Origin: Alphaproteobacteria bacterium
GTDB taxonomy: Bacteria > Pseudomonadota > Alphaproteobacteria > Rhizobiales > JAJFHC01
Length of the DNA stretch: 64,000 nucleotides
Reading direction: 5' to 3'
NCBI GenBank assembly: GCA_021775805.1
Contig: JAJFHD010000125.1
Span: 62,001 to 126,000 of the forward strand
Positions 53,407 through 60,981 of this stretch are shown piece by piece. Numbering within the stretch: the stretch's first letter is position 1; each line of letters opens with the position of its first letter. Position numbers and translations under genes: made by a program. The notes under the pieces were generated by a model. It saw only the letters and a list, made by a program, of their open reading frames with translations, did not search any database and was not told the origin of the DNA.

Positions 53407-53973
53407 TCATCGCTGGGAATCAACCACATGGTGAAGCCCGGCGCGAAAGTAGTCATATCCCGTATAAAGTGTCAGCAGCGCGGCGACCCACAAGCCGATG
53501 ACACCGATTTCCGTGCTCAGGGCGAATATCTTCTCTCCGGCCTTACCGGCGAGCAAGAACGCAATCGCTACCATCTGCACTGCGGTTTTCATCTTGGCCA
53601 GCTGGCTGACCGGCACCGATACCTGAAGTTCCGCGAGGAACTCCCGTAAGCCGGATACCAGGATCTCGCGGCTCAGGATGATGACCGCCGCCCACAGGGA
53701 GTATCCCGAAATGGTTTCGTTCTTCACCAGCATCATCAGGGCAACGGAGACCAGAAGCTTGTCGGCAATCGGATCGAGCATGCGTCCCAGAGACGATTGC
53801 AGGTTCATGATGCGCGCCAGGTAGCCGTCGAGAAAGTCCGTGATGCCGGCGGCAACAAATATCCCCAATGCCACCCAACGGGCATTATCACCTTCAAAAA
53901 AGAAGCAACCCACAAGCGCGGGCACGGCGAGAATTCGTCCGTATGTCAACAGATTGGGCAGGCTGGTCAGCAT
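53407..53973 (-). CDS. pgsA: CDP-diacylglycerol-glycerol-3-phosphate 3-phosphatidyltransferase
   Basis: A 188-residue membrane enzyme making phosphatidylglycerol phosphate. The CDP-alcohol phosphotransferase motif is complete in FLDGYLARIMNLQ followed by SLGRMLDPIADKLL (about residues 46-73). Four to five hydrophobic segments. It is usually directly downstream of uvrC in this group; here the S8 and TIR-WD40 genes separate the two. Confidence 0.94.
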   Translation of the reverse strand: MLTSLPNLLTYGRILAVPALVGCFFFEGDNARWVALGIFVAAGITDFLDGYLARIMNLQSSLGRMLDPIADKLLVSVALMMLVKNETISGYSLWAAVIILSREILVSGLREFLAELQVSVPVSQLAKMKTAVQMVAIAFLLAGKAGEKIFALSTEIGVIGLWVAALLTLYTGYDYFRAGLHHVVDSQR

Positions 53974-54187: not shown

Positions 54188-55543
54188 TTAGGGTTCGTTG
54201 AAGGCACGCCGGATGTCGAGCAGTCCATGGCCAAAAAGAGGGTCCCATCCGTCCTGGCCAAGATCGACAGCGGTTCTGGTGAACCGGTTGACGACATCCT
54301 CGGGATGCAGCCACGGCATGGACTGCCTGAGAAGTGCCACCGCGCCGGTGACATAGGCGGCAGCCATCGAAGTGCCGGAACTGGTTTCGTAACTCCTGCT
54401 GCGATGGGCCGCCAGGATGTTGACGCCAGGCGCGGACAGGGAAATGTATTCCCCCCGGTTGGCGTGTTTGTAGAGCCGGTCGCGGGCATCTGTTGCGGTC
54501 ACTGCTATGACGCTGTCATAGGCGCCCGGATAGGCCGGTGGGCCCTTGGCGCCGTGGTTGCCGGCTGCTGCCACAACAACAACGCCGGCATCTGACGCGG
54601 ACTTCAACATGGTCTGGAAAATCGGATCGGCAGGTCCCGCAAAGCTCATGTTGATCACCTGCGCGCCGCCCGCTACGGCCCAATCAACGCCTCTCAGGAG
54701 GTTGAACGTATGTCCGAGGGACTGGCGGTACTTCTTCGAGCGGGCGAAGACACGTGCCGATAACACCTTGGCTCCCGGCGCGACGCCGATCATTCCGTCT
54801 CTGGCTGCGATCACGCTTGCGACGGCAGTACCATGGGATTCCCGTGCATTGCGCTTCCTGCCGGTGAAATCTTCCTGGTCCTGCACCACACCCTTGAGCG
54901 AGGGATGAGCACGGTTTACGCCGGTGTCCAAGATGCCAACGATTATGCCATCACCGCGCGACAGGCTGTGAACGTCTTCGAGTCCAAGTTTTGCGACCGC
55001 GTATTGTGCCGCCTTCCTTGCCGAAAGTGTATACAGGTAATTGGGCTGGGCAAAGGTGATACGGGGATCAATCGACAATTGCAGCGTTCGCTGCGGCGAC
55101 AGGGGTGGACCGACACGTGACCGGATAATCCTCTGGCCGATCAATGCTATTACAGACTCAGCGATACGGGTCAGGCCGTAGTCCTGCAGAAGCGCGTCGA
55201 CGGTGGCGTCGTCGGTATTGCTGTCGACGATAATCAGCAACTCCCGTGTCGCAAACTGGGGCACGGTCGAGGGGCTGTTTTGCGTGTTCCGAGCGGGTGT
55301 GTTCCGGCGCCGTTTCCGGGTTCTGTTCCTGTTCTTGTTCCTGTCAACAGAGTTGATCAGATCATTCAGGTTTATCCGAAAGCCGAAGTTGGAACCCGAG
55401 TCGCCGCCGTTATTGTCATTGCGATCGCTGCCGGTCTGTTGTGCCTGAGCGCTGCCTGTCGCCAGAAAAAGCGCGAATACGAAGGCCGCCGTCGCAGAAA
55501 CCGTACTCGTACTGTTCGGGCCTGCTGCCAGTCGATTTTTCAT
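54188..55543 (-). CDS. Secreted S8 (subtilisin-like) serine peptidase
   Basis: A 451-residue exported protease. Signal peptide to about residue 35 (ends AQA). An Asn/Asp-rich then Arg/Lys-rich segment (about 36-90, RNRTRKRRRN) follows, then an inhibitor-like propeptide (about 98-170). The catalytic domain holds Asp206 (GILDTGVN), His237 (ESHGTAVAS), oxyanion Asn329 (AAAGNHG) and Ser392 (SGTSMAAAY). It shares a divergent 230-bp spacer with the TIR-WD40 gene. Targets unknown; the protein is probably periplasmic or secreted. Confidence 0.93.
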   Translation of the reverse strand: MKNRLAAGPNSTSTVSATAAFVFALFLATGSAQAQQTGSDRNDNNGGDSGSNFGFRINLNDLINSVDRNKNRNRTRKRRRNTPARNTQNSPSTVPQFATRELLIIVDSNTDDATVDALLQDYGLTRIAESVIALIGQRIIRSRVGPPLSPQRTLQLSIDPRITFAQPNYLYTLSARKAAQYAVAKLGLEDVHSLSRGDGIIVGILDTGVNRAHPSLKGVVQDQEDFTGRKRNARESHGTAVASVIAARDGMIGVAPGAKVLSARVFARSKKYRQSLGHTFNLLRGVDWAVAGGAQVINMSFAGPADPIFQTMLKSASDAGVVVVAAAGNHGAKGPPAYPGAYDSVIAVTATDARDRLYKHANRGEYISLSAPGVNILAAHRSRSYETSSGTSMAAAYVTGAVALLRQSMPWLHPEDVVNRFTRTAVDLGQDGWDPLFGHGLLDIRRAFNEP

Positions 55544-55563
55544 GGTATCACCTGACGTTGTAA

Positions 55564-55587
55564 TGACTCAAATAGGGTTATTTGTCA
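55564..55587. promoter_or_regulatory. Interrupted inverted repeat in the S8/TIR-WD40 spacer
   Basis: TGAC-TC-AAATA (55564-55574) and TATTT-GTCA (55579-55587) form a nearly symmetric site, interrupted by a TC bulge, around GGGT. It lies about 20 bases upstream of the S8 peptidase start and so may be an operator. The rest of the spacer (to 55773) ends with an AAGGGA ribosome-binding site before the GTG of the TIR gene. Confidence 0.35.
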
Positions 55588-55773
55588 GGATTGCAACGGG
55601 GACCGCCGTGGCCGGCATGATGATTGAAGCCAGCCACAGATCTTCCGAACAGTGTCCGGCTTGACGTGTTAAAGCAAAAAATGTCCTGATATTGCTGAGA
55701 AGCGCTACAGCATTCGTGCCGGGCGCTGACAAATGGGCAATCGGGGGGCGGAGGCGAGCGAAGGGATTTTGGC

Positions 55774-58700
55774 GTGGCGGACTCGGGAAACTCCGGTCAT
55801 CAGACCACAAAGGTCTTCATTTCATACTCCCGCAACGACAGGCAACTTGTGTCCAGAGTCGCCGAGGCGCTCGAACAGGAAGAAGACATTGCGGTATTCC
55901 GCGATACCGAAGACATTCTGCCGACGGAAGAATGGAGAGAACGGCTTGAACAACTGATCCGTGAGGCAGACACCGTCGTGTTTGCCCTCAGTCCCGACTC
56001 GGCGCAGTCGGAAGTCTGCCGTTGGGAAGTGGATTATGCGGAAAGTCTCAACAAGCGCATTGCGCCGATCGTCATCAGGGACGTGGAGGCGGACGCAATC
56101 CCTGCGCCGCTGACTAAGTACAACTATATATTCTTTACCCAAAGTGGTGATTTCGACAGCGCAACCCCGAACCTTGTTGCGGCGCTGAACACGGATATCC
56201 ATTGGATCCGCGAGCACACCCGGTTGGGTGAAATTGCCCGCCGCTGGAGAGAGCAAAAGAGGCTCGGCGCCCAGCCGCTGCGTGGGTGGGAGTTGGAAGC
56301 AGCGGAACAATGGCTTGCCGCACAACCTGCAAACGCTCCCAATCCTACCGGCCTGCATCGCCAGTACATTTCCGACAGCCGCGCCGCGGCAACCAAACGC
56401 CAGAGGTCGATAATGGGTGGATCGCTGGCGGCAGCCGTGATTGCAGCAGGACTTGCGGGTTTTGCCTTTCTGCAGCAGCAAAAGGCAGAACGGCAGCGTG
56501 CCATTGCCGAAGAACAACGTGCACAGGCACAAGAACAAAGACAGATTGCGGAGCGGCAGCGTAACGAGGCATTGCGTTCGGAGTCGCTTTATCTGGCGGA
56601 TCTGTCCGATACGCAACTGGCACTGGGTGACCCGGTTACCGGGATGCTGATCGCGCTCGCCGGCCTGAAGGACGAGAAAGAGTTGCGGGAAGCCCAGAGA
56701 GAGCGCCCCTATGTAGCGCCGACAGAGGTCAGCTTGTCCAGCGCGGTCATGGCGTTGAAGGAACTGACTGTCCTCAGGAAACACAAGCATGGCGTCAGGT
56801 TTGCGGCGTTCTCGCCGGACGGGACACGTGTCGTCACTGCCTCATACGACAAGTCGGCACGGGTCTGGAACACTGTGACGGGACACCAGTTCGCCGTCCT
56901 GGAGGGACATGACAGCACCTTGGAGAGCGCCCGTTTCTCGCCGGACGGTTCGCGTATCGTCACTGCATCCCTGGACAAGACAGCACGGCTGTGGAACGCG
57001 GTCTCGGGCAAAGAGATTGCGGTGCTTGCGGGCCACGGGCATTGGGTAAAATCCGCCGTCTTCGCGCCCGACGGTTCACGCATCGTTACAGCGTCTTCCG
57101 ACAAAACCGCACGCTTGTGGGATGCGCTGACCGGGCGCGAAATTGCCGTTCTGGGTGGCCACGATGGCAATGTGGAAAGTGCCGTCTTCTCGCCGAACGG
57201 GTCGCATGTGCTCACGGCCTCCTATGACAAGACAGCGCGGGTCTGGGATTCGTCCACGGGAAAACAGATCGCGGCCTTCGAAGGACATGAGGGCAACATC
57301 GAAAGTGCGGTTTTTTCGCCGGACGGAACCCGGGTTGCCACAGCGTCCTCCGACAACACGGCGCGGCTATGGGAGGTGGCAACCGGTGTCCAGATCGCGG
57401 TCCTCACCGGTCATCAAGACAATGTTCAGAGTGCCGCCTTCTCACCCGACGGCTCCCATGTGGTGACGGCATCCTGGGACAGGACGGCGCGGGTTTGGGA
57501 TGCCGTGACAGGCCGGCAAACCGCCGTCCTCACGGGCCATGAAGACAACGTTATCGGTGCCGCCTTCTCGCCTGACGGCGGTCTCATCGTTACCGCCTCG
57601 TATGACAAGACGGCGCGCCTCTGGGCGGCGGAAACGGGAGCCGAACTTGTGGTCTTCAGAGGCCATGAGGACAGGGTGGAATCTGCGGTTTTCTCGCCGG
57701 ACGGGTCGCAGATTGTCACGGCCTCCTATGACAGGACTGCGCGGCTCTGGTCGTCATCGACCGGGACGCAAGTCATCCGTTTCACAGGCCACGACGTTGA
57801 CGTCAACAGCGCGGTTCTTTCGTCTGACGGCAGGCTCCTTGCGACGTCCTCTTATGACAAGACGGCTCGATTGTGGGATGTGGGTTCGGGGAAGCAGATT
57901 GCCGTGTTAGCCGGACATGAGGACAACGTGCAGAGTGCGCGCTTCTCTCCCGACGATACCCGCCTCGTGACGGCGTCCTGGGACAAGACGGCGCAGGTGT
58001 GGGATGTGGTAGCCCGTCAGCAGATTGCAATCCTCAAGGGGCACGAAGACAGCGTCAACAGCGCTGAATTCTCCCCTGACGGCTCACGTATTGTGACTGC
58101 ATCCTGGGACACGACGGCGCGGCTATGGGATGCATCAACCGGTTCCGAAATCGCCGTCCTCAGGGGCCATGAGGGTAAGGTCGGGAGCGCTGTCTTCTCG
58201 CCGGATGGAACGCGTGTGGTCACGGCGTCAGGTGGCGTGGGCACCGACGACCGTACCGCAAGGGTGTGGGATGCATCGACCGGTACCCAGATTGCCGTGC
58301 TTTCAGGACATGAGGGCAACGTGAACAGCGCGATCTTCTCGCCCGATGGGACGCATGTCGTCACCACGTCCGGCGGATTCGGTTCCGATGACAATACGGT
58401 GCGGCTGTGGAATGCTGCGACGGGCGCGCAGACGGCTGTCCTGACAGGTCACGAGGACGGCGTGTGGAGTGCCGCCTTTTCGCCGGACGGCTCGCTTATG
58501 GTTACAGCATCTTCCGATAACACCGGACGCTTGTGGAACGTGGAGACCGGAAAACAGATTGCCGTTCTGGCCGGGCATACGGACAAGGTAGAAACCGCGG
58601 TGTTCTCGCCGAACGGGCTGCGCGTTGTGACCTCGTCGTGGGACAGGACGGCGCGGGTGTGGGATGCCGCCACCGGAGCGCAGGTCGCCATCGCTGCCGG

Positions 58701-58998
58701 ACATGAAGGCGAGGTGTGGGGTGCCGAATTTTCACCGGACGGGTTGCGCATCGTAACGGCATCGTCGGATGCGACCGCACGGTCGTGGCGCGTGTTCTCC
58801 AGGACGCAGGATCTGATGGCCTATGCGAAGAAAAGGGCGGCTCGTTGTCTGGTGTCGTCGGAGCGCACTCGATTTCATCTCCCGGTCGAGCCGCCAGGTT
58901 GGTGCGTGGAGAAAAACAAGTGGCCCTACGACACCGGCGATTGGCGGGCATGGCTTGCCGGGAAGCGTGCGGGTGCCCAGCCGGACATGCCGAAATGA
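55774..58998 (+). CDS. TIR - transmembrane - coiled coil - WD40 protein (16 repeats)
   Basis: A 1074-residue protein. TIR domain at residues 12-145 (VFISYSRNDRQL; BB-loop region RDTEDILPTEEW). The likely NADase Glu85 is retained in SEVCRWEVDYAES. A linker with WLAAQP and PTGLHRQYI leads to one membrane helix (about 214-233). A coiled coil rich in Gln/Arg/Glu follows (236-268), then 16 WD40 units of mostly 42 residues from 332 to 1006, enough for two propellers. A Cys/Trp-containing tail ends it. The start is GTG, 8 bases after AAGGGA. TIR-WD40 proteins occur in many proteobacteria without defined function; NAD+ cleavage or protein scaffold roles are inference. Confidence 0.92.
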   Translation: MADSGNSGHQTTKVFISYSRNDRQLVSRVAEALEQEEDIAVFRDTEDILPTEEWRERLEQLIREADTVVFALSPDSAQSEVCRWEVDYAESLNKRIAPIVIRDVEADAIPAPLTKYNYIFFTQSGDFDSATPNLVAALNTDIHWIREHTRLGEIARRWREQKRLGAQPLRGWELEAAEQWLAAQPANAPNPTGLHRQYISDSRAAATKRQRSIMGGSLAAAVIAAGLAGFAFLQQQKAERQRAIAEEQRAQAQEQRQIAERQRNEALRSESLYLADLSDTQLALGDPVTGMLIALAGLKDEKELREAQRERPYVAPTEVSLSSAVMALKELTVLRKHKHGVRFAAFSPDGTRVVTASYDKSARVWNTVTGHQFAVLEGHDSTLESARFSPDGSRIVTASLDKTARLWNAVSGKEIAVLAGHGHWVKSAVFAPDGSRIVTASSDKTARLWDALTGREIAVLGGHDGNVESAVFSPNGSHVLTASYDKTARVWDSSTGKQIAAFEGHEGNIESAVFSPDGTRVATASSDNTARLWEVATGVQIAVLTGHQDNVQSAAFSPDGSHVVTASWDRTARVWDAVTGRQTAVLTGHEDNVIGAAFSPDGGLIVTASYDKTARLWAAETGAELVVFRGHEDRVESAVFSPDGSQIVTASYDRTARLWSSSTGTQVIRFTGHDVDVNSAVLSSDGRLLATSSYDKTARLWDVGSGKQIAVLAGHEDNVQSARFSPDDTRLVTASWDKTAQVWDVVARQQIAILKGHEDSVNSAEFSPDGSRIVTASWDTTARLWDASTGSEIAVLRGHEGKVGSAVFSPDGTRVVTASGGVGTDDRTARVWDASTGTQIAVLSGHEGNVNSAIFSPDGTHVVTTSGGFGSDDNTVRLWNAATGAQTAVLTGHEDGVWSAAFSPDGSLMVTASSDNTGRLWNVETGKQIAVLAGHTDKVETAVFSPNGLRVVTSSWDRTARVWDAATGAQVAIAAGHEGEVWGAEFSPDGLRIVTASSDATARSWRVFSRTQDLMAYAKKRAARCLVSSERTRFHLPVEPPGWCVEKNKWPYDTGDWRAWLAGKRAGAQPDMPK
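56767..58791 (+). repeat. Sixteen WD40 repeats of about 126 bases
   Basis: The units are 42 codons apart (GH dipeptides at residues 379, 421, 463 and so on to 799). Two consecutive units (GH spacing 47) carry the same 5-residue insertion, SGGVGTDD and SGGFGSDD. Many DNA stretches within units are near-identical, pointing to recent amplification. The first unit is degenerate (KHKHG for GH). Confidence 0.9.
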
Positions 58999-59004
58999 CC
59001 GGCG

Positions 59005-60981
59005 TCAGGTGTGGAAGTGGTCGTGAATCTGGCGGGCAATCGTCTTGCTGATTCCATCTACCGCTTCAAGGTCGTTCAATCCGGCGCGGCTGACCGCCCG
59101 GGCAGAGCCGAAGTGGCGCAAAAGTGCGCGTTTGCGCCCGGGGCCTACTCCGGAGATTTCATCGAGAGGTGATGTGCCGATCGCCTTTTTACGGCGGGCG
59201 CGATGGCTGCCGATGGCAAACCGATGAGCTTCGTCGCGAAGCCTCTGTAGATAATAGAGAACCGGGTCGCGCGCCTCCAGCATGAAGGGCGCGCGGCCGG
59301 GCATGAAGAAACGTTCCCTGCCGGCGTCCCGGTCGGGGCCCTTGGCGATGCCAACCAGGGTTACCCGCGAGATGCCGAGATCATCCAGGACTTCCTTGAC
59401 CACCGACAACTGACCCGCCCCACCGTCGATGAAAATGATGTCAGGCCATGGCGAGACCTTGACCTCGTCAACGTCACCGCCGTCACCGGCGTCACTGTCT
59501 TCAGGGGGGGTGTCTTTCAGACCGGGCTCCGGGGATCCCGCTTTTCTGGCGTCGTTCTCTTCGACTTTGAGCAGGCGGGTGAAGCGGCGTTTAAGCACTT
59601 CGCGCATCATGCCGTAGTCGTCACCGGCCACCGTCTCCTGCGACTTGATGTTGAATTTCCGGTACTGATTTTTCAGGAATCCTTCGGCGCCGGCTACAAT
59701 CATGGCGCCGACCGGGTGGGTCCCCTGAATATGACTGTTGTCGTAGACCTCGATCCGCGCAGGCGGGGAATCGAGCCCGAATTTTTCCGCAATGCCTTCC
59801 AGCAGTGTGTTCTGGGATCTGGTTTCCGCGAGGCGCCGTCCCAGAGCTTCCCGGGCGTTGGACAGAGCATGCTCAACAAGTTCTAGCTTTTCGCCACGGC
59901 GCGGCACGGATACGGTGATCCTGCGCTCCGCGCGAACGCTCAGGGCATCGGCCAGAATAGCGCGGCCTTTGACGTCCTCGCTCAACAGGACCAGCCTGGG
60001 TATGGGTTTGTCGTCGTAGAACTGCGCGAGGAACGCCTCTAGAACTTCTGCAGCTTCGAACGATCTGTCGGCCCGGGGAAAGTAGGCGCGGTTGCCCCAG
60101 TTCTGGCCGGCGCGGAAGAAGAACACCTGGACACAGGTCTGGCCACCGTCCTGTGTGACGGCAAACACATCGCCTTCAAGAACGGTGCCGGGGTTGATGC
60201 CCTGATGAGCCTGGACGTGGGTCAGGGCAGCGATCCGGTCGCGGTAGATAGCCGCACGCTCGAAGTCGAGACCCGCACTTGCGGTTTCCATGAGCTTAAG
60301 CAGTCCGTCTTTGACCGACTGGCTGCGCCCGGCAAGGAAACCAAGCGCCTCTTTTACCAGCTCGTCATAGTCCTCACGGCTGATTTCGCCGGTGCACGGC
60401 GCACTGCAGCGCTTGATCTGATAGAGCAGGCACGGACGCGTTCGGCTTTCGTAGACCGAGTCGGAACACGAGCGCAGCAGGAAGGCACGCTGAAGCGCGT
60501 TAAGCGTCCGGTTGACGGCGCCGGCTGACGCAAAAGGTCCGAAATATTCACCCTTGCGTGAGCGCGCGCCGCGATGTTTGACAACCTGTGCGACGTCGTG
60601 ATCCCGGGCGAGCAGAATATAGGGAAACGACTTGTCGTCGCGCATCAAAACATTGAAACGCGGCTTAAGCCGCTTGATCAGATTGGCTTCCAGCAACAGT
60701 GCCTCGGCCTCCGAGGCGGTGGTGACGAACTCCATGTGGACCGTGCCGGAAATCATCCGCGCGATCCGGTTGGTATGGCCCATCAGACGGGTGTAACTCT
60801 GGACCCGCTTTTTTAGATTGCGCGCTTTGCCGACATAGAGCACATCGCCGTCCGCGTTCATCATGCGGTAGACGCCCGGCCGGTTGGGCAGATTCTTGAC
60901 GTAACCGCGAATGACGTCTGTACCTGAGGCCGGTCCGGCCTCGTCTGTCGCGGTGGTTTCTGTGGCGTCTTCGGTCGACAT
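59005..60981 (-). CDS. uvrC: UvrABC excinuclease subunit C
   Basis: A 658-residue nucleotide-excision repair nuclease making both incisions. GIY-YIG domain at the N-terminus ([25 protein letters not shown], residues 36-60), UVR motif ([24 protein letters not shown]), RNase H-like domain with [16 protein letters not shown], and tandem HhH at the end ([25 protein letters not shown]). An acidic insertion lies near 500-520. Six bases separate its stop from that of the convergent TIR-WD40 gene. Confidence 0.97.

What the first reader, a model, noticed from the sequence alone, without database searches (positions are those of the whole stretch)
54188..58998. Subtilase/TIR-WD40 islet splitting the uvrC-pgsA-moaD neighbourhood
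In many alphaproteobacteria, especially Hyphomicrobiales, uvrC, pgsA and moaD(E) are adjacent and co-directional (established knowledge). Here a divergent pair, a secreted S8 peptidase and a TIR-WD40 protein, lies between pgsA and uvrC, and uvrC and pgsA remain on the same strand. The pair shares one 230-bp spacer, as expected for a co-regulated two-gene module. Insertion of a TIR-effector-like module at a housekeeping site is how defence genes often sit. A joint function of the two proteins is inference.
Basis: partly seen in the sequence, partly recalled or inferred. Interest (0 to 1): 0.78.

Follow-up and report, generated by a model that had tools for sequence, protein, structure and literature searches.

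The report
Orphan protease beside membrane TIR–WD40 receptor
Two unrelated genes, an exported subtilisin-type protease and a predicted membrane-spanning TIR receptor with a large beta-propeller sensor, were added between two housekeeping genes in this bacterium; the receptor belongs to a widespread, modular, immune-like family, but nothing shows that it works with this particular protease.

Summary
In detail: S8 peptidase (54188-55543, -) and TIR-WD40 gene (55774-58998, +), divergent across 230 bp, lie between uvrC and pgsA-moaD. The site is empty (55-300 bp) in 27 order relatives, including all of the nearest ones examined; eight others carry unrelated cargo, none S8 or TIR. So the islet is lineage-specific. 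The claimed two-gene module is not supported: of 27 TIR-linker places and 64 S8 places in 398 genomes, and 80 TIR loci from GTDB, this is the only co-location. The S8 is an orphan of a family that normally sits in an ECF-sigma/anti-sigma/S8 operon. The TIR protein is a stand-alone, NTPase-free TIR-linker-TM-repeat protein whose C-terminus is WD40 or TPR; this TIR-rich genome (29 TIR_2 matches versus 0-7 in 40 relatives) has at least six with this N-terminal module. Best model: cytosolic TIR NADase, one TM helix, periplasmic ~16-blade propeller sensor. Defence is inferred; neighbours are defence-like at only 1 of 23 loci. Unexpectedly, a sister WD40 subfamily has a strict partner: an exported clan-CD-like putative protease, adjacent in 5/5 occurrences, also where an nSTAND1 NTPase replaces the TIR. 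This keeps a receptor-plus-exported-protease reading alive.

The parts
54188..55543 (-). exported S8 (subtilisin-type) serine peptidase, 451 aa, orphan of the ECF/anti-sigma/S8 operon family
   Evidence: PF00082 E=1.5e-48; triad D206, H237, S392 intact; homologs' operon context
55439..55543 (-). putative signal peptide of the S8 peptidase (residues about 1-35)
   Evidence: hydrophobic stretch from residue 10 on, followed by AQAQQ; no signal-peptide predictor was run
55544..55773 (.). 230-bp divergent spacer
   Evidence: ORF coordinates; no sigma70-like promoter or terminator found
55774..58998 (+). TIR-linker-TM-coiled-coil-WD40 protein, 1074 aa, GTG start
55813..56160 (+). TIR domain (residues 14-129), with E85 in an S-x-x-C-x-x-E motif
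   Evidence: TIR_2 E=5.3e-25; E85 invariant in 13 and at least 90% in 34 relatives; fold matches SPARTA TIR-APAZ, MyD88 and SARM1
56404..56472 (+). single predicted TM helix (residues 211-233), N-in by positive-inside rule
   Evidence: hydropathy; flank charges N-in in 36 of 41 relatives
56779..58824 (+). WD40 array, about 16 blades (15 regular repeats, 58% mean internal aa identity)
59005..60981 (-). uvrC (right flank, convergent with the TIR-WD40 gene)
   Evidence: Pfam
53407..53973 (-). pgsA-type CDP-alcohol phosphatidyltransferase (left flank)
   Evidence: PF01066
53131..53382 (-). moaD (ThiS family)
   Evidence: PF02597

Best explanation
Two genes of separate origin entered the normally tight uvrC-pgsA junction on this organism's branch. 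The main one is a stand-alone membrane TIR receptor: a cytosolic TIR NADase, one TM helix and a periplasmic ~16-blade WD40 sensor. A ligand or cleavage event at the propeller is proposed to cluster the proteins, so that the TIR domains assemble through the linker and coiled coil, cleave NAD+, and stop or kill the cell, most plausibly during phage attack or envelope injury. The neighbouring exported S8 peptidase comes from an ECF/anti-sigma/S8 operon family and lacks those regulators here. It may act independently, or in the same compartment as the sensor. Shown: gene architecture, empty sites, conserved glutamate, modular C-terminus, lack of co-occurrence. Inferred: NADase activity, topology, ligand, defence role.
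For: Empty site in 27 relatives, other cargo in 8, none S8/TIR. Genomes holding S8 or TIR-WD40 elsewhere, where the gap could be measured, have the site empty or filled with something else. E85 invariant in 13, at least 90% in 34 relatives; AF2 pLDDT 89.9 with best PDB fold matches to SPARTA TIR-APAZ, MyD88 and SARM1. N-terminal TIR-linker-TM conserved while the C-terminus is WD40 or TPR-like. N-in charge bias in 36 of 41. Own paralogs group with other lineages' proteins rather than together and sit singly among metabolic genes. 29 TIR_2 matches here versus 0-7 in 40 relatives; tetranucleotide match argues against contamination. S8 family next to ECF and/or anti-sigma in 22 of 28 contexts; that anti-sigma not found in G000.
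Against: No NADase or phage data. Defence genes flank only 1 of 23 loci. Repeats are not hypervariable or recently amplified (58% aa, 63% nt identity), unlike fungal NLR sensors at about 85% (PMC4986451). Topology rests on hydropathy and charge only. No same-family genome was returned, so the age and number of insertion events are unknown.
Confidence: 0.55

Rival explanations
1. S8 and TIR-WD40 are one functional unit: the exported protease cleaves or is sensed by the periplasmic propeller, and this controls the cytosolic TIR effector.
For: Both are predicted to meet in the periplasm. A sister TM-WD40 subfamily has a conserved exported clan-CD-like protease partner in 5 of 5 occurrences. Of the three S8 genes of the genome, only this one is near a TIR gene. 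Divergent 230-bp spacer.
Against: The S8/TIR-WD40 pair is seen only once: 0 further co-locations among 27 TIR and 64 S8 places in the order sample and 80 GTDB loci. The other own paralogs have no S8 nearby. The S8 family normally pairs with ECF/anti-sigma genes.
Confidence: 0.25
2. The TIR-WD40 protein is not a defence protein but a membrane stress or developmental sensor, in which TIR acts as a scaffold or signalling domain.
For: It sits among metabolic genes at nearly all loci. The profile's best sequence matches in the PDB are TLR and MyD88 TIRs. Repeats show no sign of fast diversification.
Against: Conserved glutamate; patchy occurrence, 16 of 398 genomes; one relative beside methyltransferases and Vsr; top fold matches include SPARTA and SARM1 TIRs.
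Confidence: 0.3
3. The junction is simply a permissive spot where unrelated single genes accumulate, and the two genes have nothing to do with each other or with defence.
For: Other cargo at the same gap: TPR/sulfotransferase-like, GNAT, mechanosensitive-channel-like, peroxiredoxin-like and others. Codon usage of both genes is like that of the flanks.
Against: Does not explain a TIR-rich genome or the conserved TIR active site.
Confidence: 0.3

Closest known systems
Bacterial TIR NADase immune effectors (SPARTA TIR-APAZ, Thoeris ThsB, SpbK) and SARM1
   Same: TIR fold, conserved glutamate, TIR joined to a sensing module; best PDB fold matches include SPARTA and SARM1
   Different: no APAZ/Ago, no ThsA partner, no NTPase; membrane-spanning with a WD40 array; only weak ThsB profile hits
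Prokaryotic and fungal STAND/NLR proteins with WD40 or TPR sensors (PMC7159879, PMC8195603, PMC4986451)
   Same: effector at the N-terminus, repeat sensor at the C-terminus, WD40/TPR swapped
   Different: no NACHT/NB-ARC/STAND NTPase; a TM helix and coiled coil instead; internal repeat identity 58%, not about 85%
Swarozyc/DUF4062 TIR-like NADases (PMC13174449)
   Same: TIR-like NADase plus auxiliary sensor; DUF4062 also occurs with NACHT and WD40 in human TEP1
   Different: window protein is canonical TIR_2 and predicted membrane-bound; only the sister loci L307/L308 have a weakly DUF4062-like N-terminus with nSTAND1
IetAS (S8 anti-phage peptidase IetS plus ATPase IetA)
   Same: S8 peptidase fold
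   Different: weak partial IetS hits only; no AAA ATPase partner; predicted exported
ECF sigma/anti-sigma/S8 peptidase operon of this order
   Same: same S8 family (34-48% identity)
   Different: window S8 has no sigma or anti-sigma gene beside it

Membership tests
TIR NADase family | TIR domain over curated cut-off | tested here: met
   TIR_2 88.7 bits versus 28
TIR NADase family | conserved active-site glutamate | tested here: met
   E85 invariant in 13, at least 90% in 34 relatives; equivalence to the SARM1 glutamate is by motif position, not by assay
TIR NADase family | NAD+ cleavage | not testable with these tools
   needs an assay
Thoeris | ThsA (SIR2/SLOG, macro or TM effector) beside ThsB | tested here: not met
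   neighbours are S8, uvrC and pgsA
STAND/NLR receptors | central STAND NTPase (NACHT, NB-ARC, nSTAND) | tested here: not met
   no NTPase domain between TIR and WD40; residues 201-349 have no significant Pfam hit
HET-E-like hypervariable WD40 sensors | about 85% or more internal repeat identity | tested here: not met
   58.5% aa, 63% nt; benchmark PMC4986451
S8 peptidase family | PF00082 and an intact D/H/S triad | tested here: met
IetAS | full-length IetS match and an IetA ATPase neighbour | tested here: not met
T7SS mycosin | TIGR03921 over cut-off | tested here: not met
   217.1 versus 278.75 bits
ECF/anti-sigma/S8 operon | adjacent ECF sigma and membrane anti-sigma genes | tested here: not met
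   absent in the window; anti-sigma not found in G000; ECF and/or anti-sigma beside 22 of 28 homologs
Conserved S8 + TIR-WD40 two-gene module | co-location in more than one genome | tested here: not met

The most novel reading that the evidence does not exclude
TIR- or STAND-linked TM-WD40 receptors form a class of transmembrane immune sensors whose periplasmic propellers work with interchangeable exported proteases: a clan-CD-like protease at G000:C54 and in four other genomes, and a recruited S8 subtilase in this window. Periplasmic proteolysis would then trigger cytosolic NAD+ depletion.
Probability: 0.22. Interest if true: 0.78.

Novelty: new variant of a known kind. Interest (0 to 1): 0.47.

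Why it matters
Bacterial TIR effectors are usually described as soluble proteins with a cytosolic sensor or an NTPase. A widespread, NTPase-free, membrane-spanning family (Alphaproteobacteria, Cyanobacteria, Chloroflexi, Verrucomicrobia and others) with a swappable propeller or TPR sensor would resemble Toll-like receptors in logic: the sensor outside the membrane, the TIR inside. The strict exported partner of the sister subfamily gives a testable entry to how such receptors could be triggered. For the window itself, the result is a caution: divergent adjacency and an empty site do not make a functional pair.

Tried and rejected
(1) S8 + TIR-WD40 as a conserved module: rejected by the co-location survey. 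(2) Defence-island membership: PADLOC scan of 98 neighbours at 23 loci; the families listed with two members are all methyltransferases, and L166 holds two of these. Only the first 25 of 100 matched families were shown. (3) Plasmid carriage: one TIR hit on a Tolypothrix plasmid, no close plasmid copy of the S8. (4) Recently amplified or hypervariable WD40 repeats: not supported. (5) MAG contamination as the cause of the TIR expansion: nine own TIR/WD40 contig stretches match the window's tetranucleotide profile at r 0.93-0.97, relatives at 0.70-0.80. (6) Target-site duplication at the islet ends: no shared repeat of 7 bp or more in the flanks tested. (7) Protease motif scan near TIR loci: only the clan-CD-like family recurs convincingly; no S1 or S8 motif (the scan is motif-based and would miss divergent proteases). 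(9) Foreign codon usage: not seen.

Full report
Observation. The window holds an S8 peptidase gene (54188-55543, minus), a 230-bp spacer and a TIR-WD40 gene (55774-58998, plus, GTG start). They lie between pgsA (53407-53973, minus) and uvrC (59005-60981, minus), with moaD beyond pgsA. The S8 has an intact D206/H237/S392 triad and an N-terminal hydrophobic export signal. The TIR domain scores 88.7 bits against TIR_2, cut-off 28. Fifteen regular WD40 repeats follow one more divergent blade; the full-length model is all-beta from about residue 341 to 964, at moderate confidence (mean pLDDT 73.6).

The site. uvrC, pgsA and moaD were mapped in order relatives. In 27 genomes the uvrC-pgsA gap is 55-300 bp. 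These include the lineages whose uvrC is closest to the window's (G036, G037, G112, G077, G143, G167). Eight genomes carry other genes or a longer gap there, such as a TPR/sulfotransferase-like, a GNAT, a mechanosensitive-channel-like or a peroxiredoxin-like gene (read from sequence; not profile-checked). None carries an S8 or TIR gene there. The islet is therefore best read as gained on this branch. The search returned no genome of the same family, so the age and the number of events are open. Codon usage matches the flanks and no shared terminal repeat of 7 bp or more was found.

Is it a module? In 398 order genomes the TIR-linker occurs at 27 places in 16 genomes (E<=1e-30) and the S8 at 64 places in 61 genomes (E<=1e-65). 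The window is the only co-location. Three other genomes (G037, G391, G269) have both, on different contigs. None of 80 GTDB loci found with a TIR-linker profile has an S8 homolog within the flanks held, up to 8 kb. The own-genome paralogs lack an S8 neighbour. The S8 family instead lies beside an ECF sigma factor and/or a membrane anti-sigma factor in 22 of 28 contexts. That anti-sigma was not found in this genome (a search without a positive control), so the S8 looks like an orphan.

The TIR protein. It is a stand-alone protein with TIR, a conserved DIxWIREHTRL linker, one TM helix, a coiled coil and a repeat array. Across relatives the N-terminal part stays, while the C-terminus is WD40 in some and TPR-like in others (the TPR reading is from sequence pattern). 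E85 in an S-x-x-C-x-x-E motif is invariant in 13 and at least 90% conserved in 34 sequences. The AF2 model of residues 1-250 (pLDDT 89.9) matches SPARTA TIR-APAZ, MyD88 and SARM1 best. Flank charges put the N-terminus inside in 36 of 41 relatives, hence a predicted periplasmic WD40 array. There is no NTPase. Internal repeat identity is 58% aa and 63% nt, against about 85% in fungal NLRs with concerted evolution (PMC4986451), so rapid repeat shuffling is not supported.

Genome context. This genome has 29 TIR_2 matches versus 0-7 in 40 relatives, and at least six proteins with the same N-terminal module. Composition argues that these contigs belong to the same organism. In the tree the paralogs group with sequences from other lineages (C136 with Roseibium, C54 with G143, C141 with G112) rather than with each other; only the window and C20 pair, weakly. 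Among the five pairs of loci compared around paralogs, flanks are shared only at C54. This looks like repeated acquisition or old paralogy of single genes. Defence genes flank 1 of 23 loci (L166: two cytosine methyltransferases and Vsr). Defence is therefore inferred from the protein, not from its neighbours.

A side finding that bears on mechanism. The C54 paralog (L093) lies divergent to a 390-aa gene with an N-terminal hydrophobic signal, a C-terminal hydrophobic segment and no Pfam or NCBIfam hit. Its family was found in 3 of 398 order genomes and 2 further genomes of a 385-genome class sample, and in no further genome of a 229-genome phylum sample. All five lie directly beside a gene whose WD40 part is homologous to L093. 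In two of them (L307, L308) the TIR is replaced by an nSTAND1 NTPase with a weakly DUF4062-like N-terminus (Pfam E=0.29 for L308, below cut-off); DUF4062 has been reported as a TIR-like NADase family (PMC13174449). H205-G206 and C278-x-S280-G281 are invariant, the arrangement of a clan CD (caspase/legumain-like) dyad. This is a motif argument only; no profile or structure match supports it. The partner follows the WD40 sensor, not the effector. It suggests, but does not show, that TM-WD40 sensors work with exported proteases, and it is the main reason to keep a joint role for the window's S8 open.

Verdict. Observation confirmed. The islet is real and lineage-specific. The pair as a module is not supported; the TIR-WD40 protein is a member of a modular transmembrane TIR family with a plausible immune role; function is untested.

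Noticed in passing
L093:1645-2817:- with L093:3302-6205:+ (G000:C54); L162, L175, L307, L308: Uncharacterised exported protein family with a clan-CD-like SHG / C-x-SG motif, directly beside a TM-WD40 gene in 5 of 5 occurrences; the effector of that gene is TIR in three and nSTAND1 (weakly DUF4062-like N-terminus) in two.
   Followed up: partly
whole genome G000: 29 TIR_2 matches versus 0-7 in 40 order relatives; at least six proteins share the TIR-linker-TM module.
   Followed up: partly
L180:9840-10538:- (P0001) and similar loci: Membrane anti-sigma factor of the ECF/anti-sigma/S8 operon has a C-terminal stretch weakly like a fervidolysin prodomain (PF22148, E=0.002, below cut-off): the anti-sigma may carry a protease-propeptide-like domain recognised by the S8.
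   Followed up: no
L205, L210, L211, L212, L216: Same TIR-linker-TM N-terminus joined to TPR-like repeats instead of WD40.
   Followed up: partly
L166 (G391:C6): TIR-WD40 relative beside two C5-cytosine methyltransferases, a Vsr endonuclease and transposase-like genes, about 8 kb from uvrC.
   Followed up: partly
L077, L079, L080, L082, L083, L088: The uvrC-pgsA gap holds different single genes in different relatives.
   Followed up: partly
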